Translations under genes and position numbers: made by a program
Assembly (NCBI RefSeq): GCF_004210215.2
Contig: NZ_CP067394.1
Span: 310,001-374,000, forward strand
Source of the DNA: Cryobacterium sp. SO1
GTDB taxonomy: Bacteria > Actinomycetota > Actinomycetes > Actinomycetales > Microbacteriaceae
DNA length: 64,000 nt
Reading direction: 5' to 3'
Notes under the pieces: model-generated
The model's database searches: none
Told to the model about the DNA's origin: nothing
Seen by the model: only the letters and a program-made list of their open reading frames with translations
Shown here: piece by piece, positions 38,896 to 64,000 of the stretch
Numbering within the stretch: position 1 is the stretch's first letter
How the letters are laid out: the number at the start of each line of letters is the position of its first letter

Positions 38896-38959
38896 ACTGT
38901 GGCCGATGCGGACTACTGCGCCCGGTACGCCGGGCACAATTGTCCGCACCGGCCACAGT
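38896..38959. repeat. Dispersed palindrome family A, copy 2
   Basis: ACTGTGGCCG and CGGCCACAGT close the element; inside are GCGGACTACTGCGCCCGG and CCGGGCACAATTGTCCGC around TACG. It lies between the DsbA-like gene stop and the CHY gene start. Confidence 0.7.
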
Positions 38960-63218: not shown

Positions 63219-63286
63219 CAACTGGTCCCCGTGCGGACTAATGCGCCCGGCGTACCGGGCGCATTAGTCCGCTTCGGCAACAGTTG
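63219..63286. repeat. Dispersed palindrome family A, copy 3
   Basis: Best copy: GCGGACTAATGCGCCCGG (63233-63250) and its perfect 18-bp complement (63255-63272) around CGTA, framed by CAACTG...CAGTTG. Follows the ktrBA operon and may terminate it. Confidence 0.75.
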
Positions 63287-63377: not shown

Positions 63378-63444
63378 ACTACTGGTGCCCGTGCGGACAT
63401 TTGCACCCGGCGTACCGGGACCATTCGTCCGCACGGGTAACAGT
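63378..63444. repeat. Dispersed palindrome family A, copy 4
   Basis: CCCGTGCGGAC (63388-63398) with GTCCGCACGGG (63427-63437), inner CACCCGGCGTACCGGGACC. Same orientation as copy 3, 159 bases away. From 63445 to 63632 I see no gene. Confidence 0.72.
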
Positions 63445-63632: not shown

Positions 63633-63660
63633 GAAACGCCCACTCGAGAGCGGGCGTTTC
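63633..63660 (-). terminator. Intrinsic terminator at the distal end of the tRNA-derived array
   Basis: GAAACGCCC (63633-63641) and GGGCGTTTC (63652-63660), perfect 9-bp arms, 10-base loop. It abuts the left end of the repeat array. It suggests that a minus-strand transcript starting beyond the window reads through the array and stops here. Confidence 0.65.
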
Positions 63661-63661
63661 A

Positions 63662-64000
63662 CTGGCGGAGAGTGGGGGATTCGGACCCCGCGCGTGGGTT
63701 TTGTGCTTTCACCCAACACGTTTACAACTGGCGGAGAGTGGGGGATTCGGACCCCGCGCGTGGGTTTTGTGCTTTCACCCAACACGTTTACAACTGGCGG
63801 AGAGTGGGGGATTCGGACCCCGCGCGTGGGTTTTGTGCTTTCACCCAACACGTTTACAACTGGCGGAGAGTGGGGGATTCGGACCCCGCGCGTGGGTTTT
63901 GTGCTTTCACCCAACACGTTTACAACTGGCGGAGAGTGGGGGATTCGGACCCCGCGCGTGGGTTTTGTGCTTTCACCCAACACGTTTACAACTGGCGGAG
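63662..64000 (-). repeat. 66-bp tandem repeats copying the 3' part of a tRNA-Ser
   Basis: Five full units begin at 63662, 63728, 63794, 63860 and 63926, and a sixth begins at 63992 and is cut by the window edge; the units look identical. On the minus strand each unit reads CGTGTTGGGTGAAAGCAC, ACCCACGCG (a long variable arm), GGGGTCCGAATCCCCC (T arm) and ACTCTCCGCCA (acceptor strand, discriminator G, encoded CCA). A long variable arm with G73 means tRNA-Ser. The 5' half of the tRNA is absent from every unit, so the full gene should lie just right of 64000. All units are also open in one minus frame (22-residue repeat), which is probably incidental. Confidence 0.8.

What the first reader, a model, noticed from the sequence alone, without database searches (positions are those of the whole stretch)
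63662..64000. Tandem array of tRNA-Ser 3' segments, probably co-transcribed with the tRNA
At least five 66-bp direct repeats each carry the variable arm, T arm, 3' acceptor strand and CCA of a class II tRNA with discriminator G (tRNA-Ser). A terminator hairpin sits exactly at the end distal to the expected tRNA, so the primary transcript would be tRNA-Ser plus five or more tRNA tails. The closest known parallel is the E. coli tyrT locus, where repeats starting with the last 19 bases of tRNA-Tyr follow the tRNA and yield rtT RNA. The tails could titrate tRNA-processing enzymes or act as an RNA sponge, or be scars of repeated integration at an att site. A C.C pair at the T-stem base recurs in all units, suggesting one founder copy.
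Basis: partly seen in the sequence, partly recalled or inferred. Interest (0 to 1): 0.87.

Follow-up and report, generated by a model that had tools for sequence, protein, structure and literature searches.

The report
Repeated tRNA-serine tails after the gene
A Cryobacterium chromosome carries a serine tRNA gene followed by twelve identical copies of its own back half, a fast-changing repeat array seen after the same gene in many related bacteria and resembling one long known in E. coli; whether it does anything is not known.

Summary
Window 63663-64000 is the far end of twelve identical 66-bp units (C1:373663-374454, minus strand). They run head to tail from the CCA of a tRNA-Ser(GGA) gene (C1:374455-374542, just right of the window) to a terminator-like hairpin (window 63633-63660). 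Each unit matches that tRNA from about the anticodon loop to CCA, with 7- and 3-nt insertions. Of 49 tRNA genes in this genome, only this one has such an array.

The genus is Cryobacterium. Tails or remnants follow the same gene in 26 of 55 congeneric loci read; 19 of 55 have two or more copies. Close relatives have 12, 1 and 0 copies. At least 26 genomes in 18 other genera of the family have adjacent tails.

The units are not coding and show no strong sequence or structure constraint. In ten of 49 tail-bearing genomes a terminator-like hairpin separates tRNA and tail. Best reading: an old, local half-tRNA minisatellite that grows, shrinks and homogenises by exchange between tails, probably co-transcribed here. 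The closest known case, the E. coli tyrV/rtT repeats, was checked here. A sponge, processing-decoy or integrase-landing role is not excluded and not shown.

The parts
63633..63660 (-). 12-pair hairpin, terminator-like, 2 nt after the last CCA of the array
   Evidence: the same hairpin follows tRNA CCA directly in array-free relatives G022, G023, G030, G038, G048
63663..63728 (-). unit 12 (the one farthest from the tRNA), 66 bp, ends in CCA
63729..63794 (-). unit 11
63795..63860 (-). unit 10
63861..63926 (-). unit 9
63927..63992 (-). unit 8
63993..64000 (-). CCA end of unit 7, cut by the window edge; units 7 to 1 and the tRNA-Ser(GGA) gene follow outside the window, up to C1:374542

Best explanation
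A local, fast-changing tandem array (minisatellite) made of the 3' half of tRNA-Ser(GGA). Shown: 12 identical units between the gene and a terminator-like hairpin; tails after the same gene in about half of the genus and in at least 18 other genera of the family; copy number that differs between close relatives; units nearly identical within a genome and different between species. Inferred: the founder was an old partial duplication of the tRNA 3' half (an integration scar is the main alternative). Because tRNA and units share a directly repeated tail of about 19-27 bp, slippage or unequal recombination between tails adds, removes and homogenises units and keeps the tail near the tRNA sequence while the insert drifts. 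In this genome the array should be transcribed as a trailer of about 0.8 kb on pre-tRNA-Ser and be removed in maturation; the tail fragments are most likely by-products without a selected function.
For: Array, gene and hairpin. Only 1 of 49 tRNA genes has it. Genus survey. Copies 12 (G000), 1 (G046), 0 (G002) in neighbours on rpoB trees. Array-free relatives with CCA joined directly to the hairpin, as loss by exchange between tails would leave. Identical inner units, differing edge units, mosaic units (G017, G013, G034) and partial last units. The tail core lies only at this locus in 55 of 57 genomes or is not matched at all (53 only there, 2 no match, 2 elsewhere too). Insert identity falls with rpoB fourfold identity.
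Against: The tail stays at 0.85-0.94 identity at all distances, which purifying selection would also give. Insert identity is not a clean decline (0.87, 0.72, 0.76, 0.65, 0.57) and tails were found by similarity, so weak constraint is not excluded. Some inserts fold well (G155 z -4.4, G065 -2.9, G467 -2.8, G000 -2.0). Tails recur after this one tRNA in many genera, which plain chance duplication does not explain. No recombination or RNA experiment was possible.
Confidence: 0.62

Rival explanations
1. Attachment-site origin: the tails are scars, or a landing array, of tyrosine integrases that target the 3' end of tRNA-Ser(GGA). An element once integrated and was lost, leaving a second tail that was later amplified.
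For: The tail is shared as a distant direct repeat, 2.7-65 kb away on the same contig, in 11 of 35 genomes searched again; in 16 of 18 such stretches read the match starts at about GTTCGAAT. Arthrobacter phage records (24) carry 27-33 nt of the tRNA tail; in the two read it lies 1.3-1.6 kb from an annotated Y-integrase. In the adjacent tails too, deviations concentrate in the first 11 columns.
Against: The insert was not found beside those distant cores or phage cores by eye, nor in viral contigs. Within the genus copies elsewhere are rare (2 of 57). The part upstream of the tail matches the host's own anticodon stem and variable arm in many genomes. I did not look for integrase genes beside the distant copies, so calling them islands is inference.
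Confidence: 0.2
2. Functional RNA: the co-transcribed tails act as a sponge for small RNAs, a decoy for tRNA 3'-processing enzymes, or an rtT-like regulatory RNA.
For: Position between tRNA and terminator here and in G046; conserved CCA in nearly all CCA-encoding Cryobacterium tails; the E. coli parallel gives a processed RNA (passages of PMC4986893).
Against: 26 of 55 loci only; copy number 0 to 12 in close relatives; drift-like insert; weak average structure; terminator-like hairpin before the tail in ten of 49 genomes; no RtT match.
Confidence: 0.13
3. A repeat protein is encoded by the array.
For: Open frames of 333, 363, 283 and 276 aa run through it, because 66 is a multiple of three.
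Against: Homologous arrays have periods of 66 to 74 bp, mostly not multiples of three; frames are open on both strands simply by repetition.
Confidence: 0.01

Closest known systems
E. coli tyrT/tyrV repeats and rtT RNA (Rfam RF00391 RtT)
   Same: Head-to-tail units directly after a tRNA gene, each ending in the tRNA's own 3' end with CCA; read here at K-12 tyrV: three 178-bp units, each with the last 19 nt of tRNA-Tyr exact.
   Different: Other phylum, other tRNA, 66-74-bp units (103 bp in one genome), up to 12 copies, more of the tRNA in the unit; no RtT match here.
Attachment-site direct repeats of phages and islands at tRNA 3' ends
   Same: The same tRNA tail serves as shared core in Arthrobacter phages and as distant repeats in the family.
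   Different: Tails here abut the tRNA, in many copies, with no element between.
Bacterial minisatellites / VNTR loci (general knowledge, not tested as a family)
   Same: Variable copy number, near-identical units, partial last units.
   Different: Anchored on, and partly matching, a tRNA gene, and found after the same gene across genera.

Membership tests
tyrT/rtT-type repeats after a tRNA | tandem units directly after a tRNA gene, each ending in that tRNA's 3' end and CCA | tested here: met
   E. coli comparison
tyrT/rtT-type repeats after a tRNA | sequence or structure match to RtT RNA (RF00391) | tested here: not met
   three RtT matches at the E. coli locus, none in L005; none up to E = 1 either
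tyrT/rtT-type repeats after a tRNA | an RNA released from the tRNA transcript | not testable with these tools
   no RNA data; only the position of the hairpin
Integration-site remnant | tail identity block shared with known or likely attachment cores | tested here: met
Integration-site remnant | element or integrase between or next to the tails | tested here: inconclusive
   units abut without intervening DNA; the surroundings were not searched for integrases
tRNA gene copies | complete cloverleaf in the unit | tested here: not met
   ARAGORN and Rfam find only the one gene in this stretch
Minisatellite | copy number varies between close relatives | tested here: met
   12, 1 and 0 copies in G000, G046, G002

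The most novel reading that the evidence does not exclude
The array is a selected buffer at an integration hot spot or in tRNA maturation: repeated half-tRNAs offer integrases that target tRNA-Ser(GGA), or the enzymes that trim its 3' end, up to twelve alternative substrates, and species tune the dose by changing copy number.
Probability: 0.12. Interest if true: 0.8.

Novelty: new variant of a known kind. Interest (0 to 1): 0.52.

Why it matters
The E. coli tyrT/tyrV repeats look like a curiosity of one locus. A separate case in another phylum, with dozens of species at different stages (0 to 12 copies, remnants, mosaics, units that carry a terminator-like hairpin), makes it testable how such arrays arise and vanish, whether a trailer of many half-tRNAs disturbs maturation of its tRNA, and whether attachment-core tails seed repeats. 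It also warns annotators: the array yields long spurious reading frames.

Tried and rejected
Mobile origin of the unit: no match of degenerate unit patterns in viral contigs. The 24 phage records and the one plasmid record matched only the tRNA-tail part of the query. The exact 22-mer of this genome's unit had 0 matches in genome contigs. Conserved RNA structure: RNAalifold gave 4 pairs, none with a change on both sides; hairpin z-scores were weak on average (-0.76 for 29 tails, -0.59 for 18; the host variable arm as control -1.4). Selection on the insert: I first suspected it because the insert recurs across genera; one search showed it falling with rpoB fourfold identity, so I dropped it as a claim. 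That test used 26 of 29 rows (G013b, G017d, G019 left out), counted gaps as differences, and used tails found by similarity. Homology of the first 8 nt of the unit to the anticodon loop is only suggestive (5.5% of shuffles reach the score). Coding: rejected on period lengths. Earlier description: nine answered paper searches, judged from listings only, showed nothing on such arrays in Actinobacteria; the library holds open-licence papers only.

Technical: one search used wrong frames and is not used; one search replaces it. Trees rest on rpoB alone, without G029 and G039, which gave no match (G025 and G027 were not sent); G050 has a truncated, long-branched sequence. G041 has an N and G034 is split between contigs inside the array. 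Draft assemblies may collapse arrays. The limit of 9 mismatches in 27 or 29 used to list tails admits chance hits (one listed for G317 looks like chance); adjacent tails were also read by eye. Terminator-like hairpins in relatives were judged by eye.

Full report
What is there. The window ends inside an array of direct repeats. The genome is one contig of 4,068,634 bases and the window is C1:310001-374000. The stretch to the right shows 12 identical 66-bp units at C1:373663-374454. On the minus strand they start directly after the CCA of a tRNA-Ser(GGA) gene (C1:374455-374542) and end 2 nt before a 12-pair hairpin at window 63633-63660. A small SRP RNA gene lies on the far side of the tRNA, on the plus strand. 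BLAST aligns each unit to tRNA positions 33-88 at 77%; a global alignment puts a 7-nt insertion in the variable arm and 3 nt before the T stem. Of 49 tRNA genes in the genome only this one is followed by an array; three others have an exact tail copy 450-500 nt on, which by position are neighbouring tRNA genes of the same cluster.

Relatives. After a search of 149 relatives I read the tRNA-Ser(GGA) locus of 55 of the 57 genomes of the genus (G025 and G027 gave no match). 23 have a full-length tail, G043's being degenerate, and G008, G019 and G053 have remnants: 26 of 55. 19 of 55 have two or more. Counts include 12 (G000), 10 (G009), 8 (G032), 6 (G005) and 5 (G037); in drafts these are lower bounds. 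A degenerate pattern found 13 stretches in genome contigs, nine in Cryobacterium (lactosi, glucosi, glaciale, gelidum, psychrotolerans and four unnamed species) and one each in Herbiconiux, Plantibacter, Curtobacterium and Agromyces. In the family, 398 genomes, 10 of them of this genus, were searched with a sequence model, and 35 of those with further matches were searched again. Adjacent tails were counted in 26 genomes of 18 other genera. This is a lower bound, since lists were cut and the model came mostly from Cryobacterium; in some of them (G155, G179, G467, G250, G432) the insert is unrelated. In the order, 297 genomes were searched; extra matches there were not followed. G134, of another family, has two units of 117 and 116 bp with a shorter tail.

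Dynamics. On rpoB trees G000 (12 copies) is sister to G046, C. lactosi (1), with G002 (0) close by. Array-free relatives G022, G023, G030, G038 and G048 have the hairpin directly after CCA. Units are near identical within a genome and differ between genomes; edge units often differ, some arrays hold mosaic units, and several end in a partial unit. A 23-nt tail core with up to 2 mismatches was found at this locus only in 53 of 57 genomes, elsewhere too in G010 and G011, and not at all in G025 and G027; tails with more mismatches are not counted.

Constraint. Over 325 pairs of units, binned by rpoB fourfold identity (0.92, 0.86, 0.72, 0.66, 0.58), identity of the inserted segment is 0.87, 0.72, 0.76, 0.65, 0.57; the tail is 0.85-0.94 and the spacer 0.15-0.51. 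So the insert diverges about like fourfold sites, with scatter, and the spacer faster. Mean deviation of tails from their own tRNA is 0.103 per column in GGGGTTCGAAT, 0.037 in the next 12 columns and 0.045 in the last four (23 Cryobacterium genomes); 0.093, 0.030 and 0.082 in 26 others. Changes in the 5' strand of the T stem are not matched in the 3' strand, except in one G239 unit. Hairpin energies of the insert are only slightly better than shuffles on average, though a few are strong. Neither the insert nor the T arm looks strongly constrained; rpoB fourfold sites may be biased and the tails were found by similarity, so weak constraint remains possible.

Transcription. Here and in G046 the hairpin follows the array, so the tails are probably part of the pre-tRNA. 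In ten of the 49 genomes (G004, G081, G216, G324, G288, G382, G200, G394, G250, G432) a terminator-like hairpin, seen by eye, lies between tRNA and tail. Co-transcription is therefore not a general property.

Integration. In 11 of the 35 genomes further copies lie 2.7-65 kb away on the same contig; of 18 stretches read from 13 genomes, 16 match from about GTTCGAAT on and two over all 27 nt. I did not look for integrases there. 24 Arthrobacter phage records carry 27-33 nt of the tail; in the two read it lies 1.3-1.6 kb from an annotated Y-integrase. The insert is not seen beside those cores. A scar as founder stays possible; repeated integration does not easily give 12 identical abutting copies.

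Known parallel. At E. coli K-12 tyrV I read three 178-bp units, each ending in the last 19 nt of tRNA-Tyr exactly, with three RtT matches. Passages of PMC4986893 say that RtT RNAs were first found as pieces released from the tyrT transcript during tRNA processing, with effects on the stringent response; a passage of PMC2965389 links rtT-like elements to BIMEs. The original paper of Bosl and Kersten is not held. The architecture here is the same; the sequence is not.

Verdict. The array is a new variant of a rare known kind, with unusually good comparative material. The most likely mechanism is a local half-tRNA minisatellite; a biological role is neither shown nor excluded.

Noticed in passing
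L211; G000 C1:3106503-3106575 (minus), outside the window: tRNA-Thr(TGT) has one tail copy (3 mismatches in 27) ending 967 nt downstream, like a scar of an old integration.
   Followed up: partly
window 38919-38947 and 63393-63421, with a similar core at 63248-63259: A palindromic repeat around CGGCGTACCGGG; the 29-nt form has 2 matches in the window against 0 expected, the 12-nt core 4 against 1.3. Similar copies lie after tRNA-Ser in G022, G023, G030, G048: looks like a dispersed REP-like family.
   Followed up: partly
L080 (G010 C13): G010 has a second, different tRNA-Ser(GGA) gene near a contig end, with another tail core 14 kb away: looks like an island that carries its own copy of the tRNA.
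   Followed up: no
L035 (G049), L054 (G055): Here the tRNA-Ser(GGA) gene ends in GCAA instead of GCCA, while the G049 tail keeps GCCA.
   Followed up: no
L079 (G021), L088 (G134), L134 (G204): Another kind of tail: a GAGGAGGAG-type repeat ahead of only the last 16-18 nt of the tRNA, closer in layout to the E. coli tyrV unit.
   Followed up: no
L005 444-1445 (-), 454-1545 (+): Spurious open frames of 333 and 363 aa with 22-aa repeats run through the array and could be annotated as proteins.
   Followed up: yes
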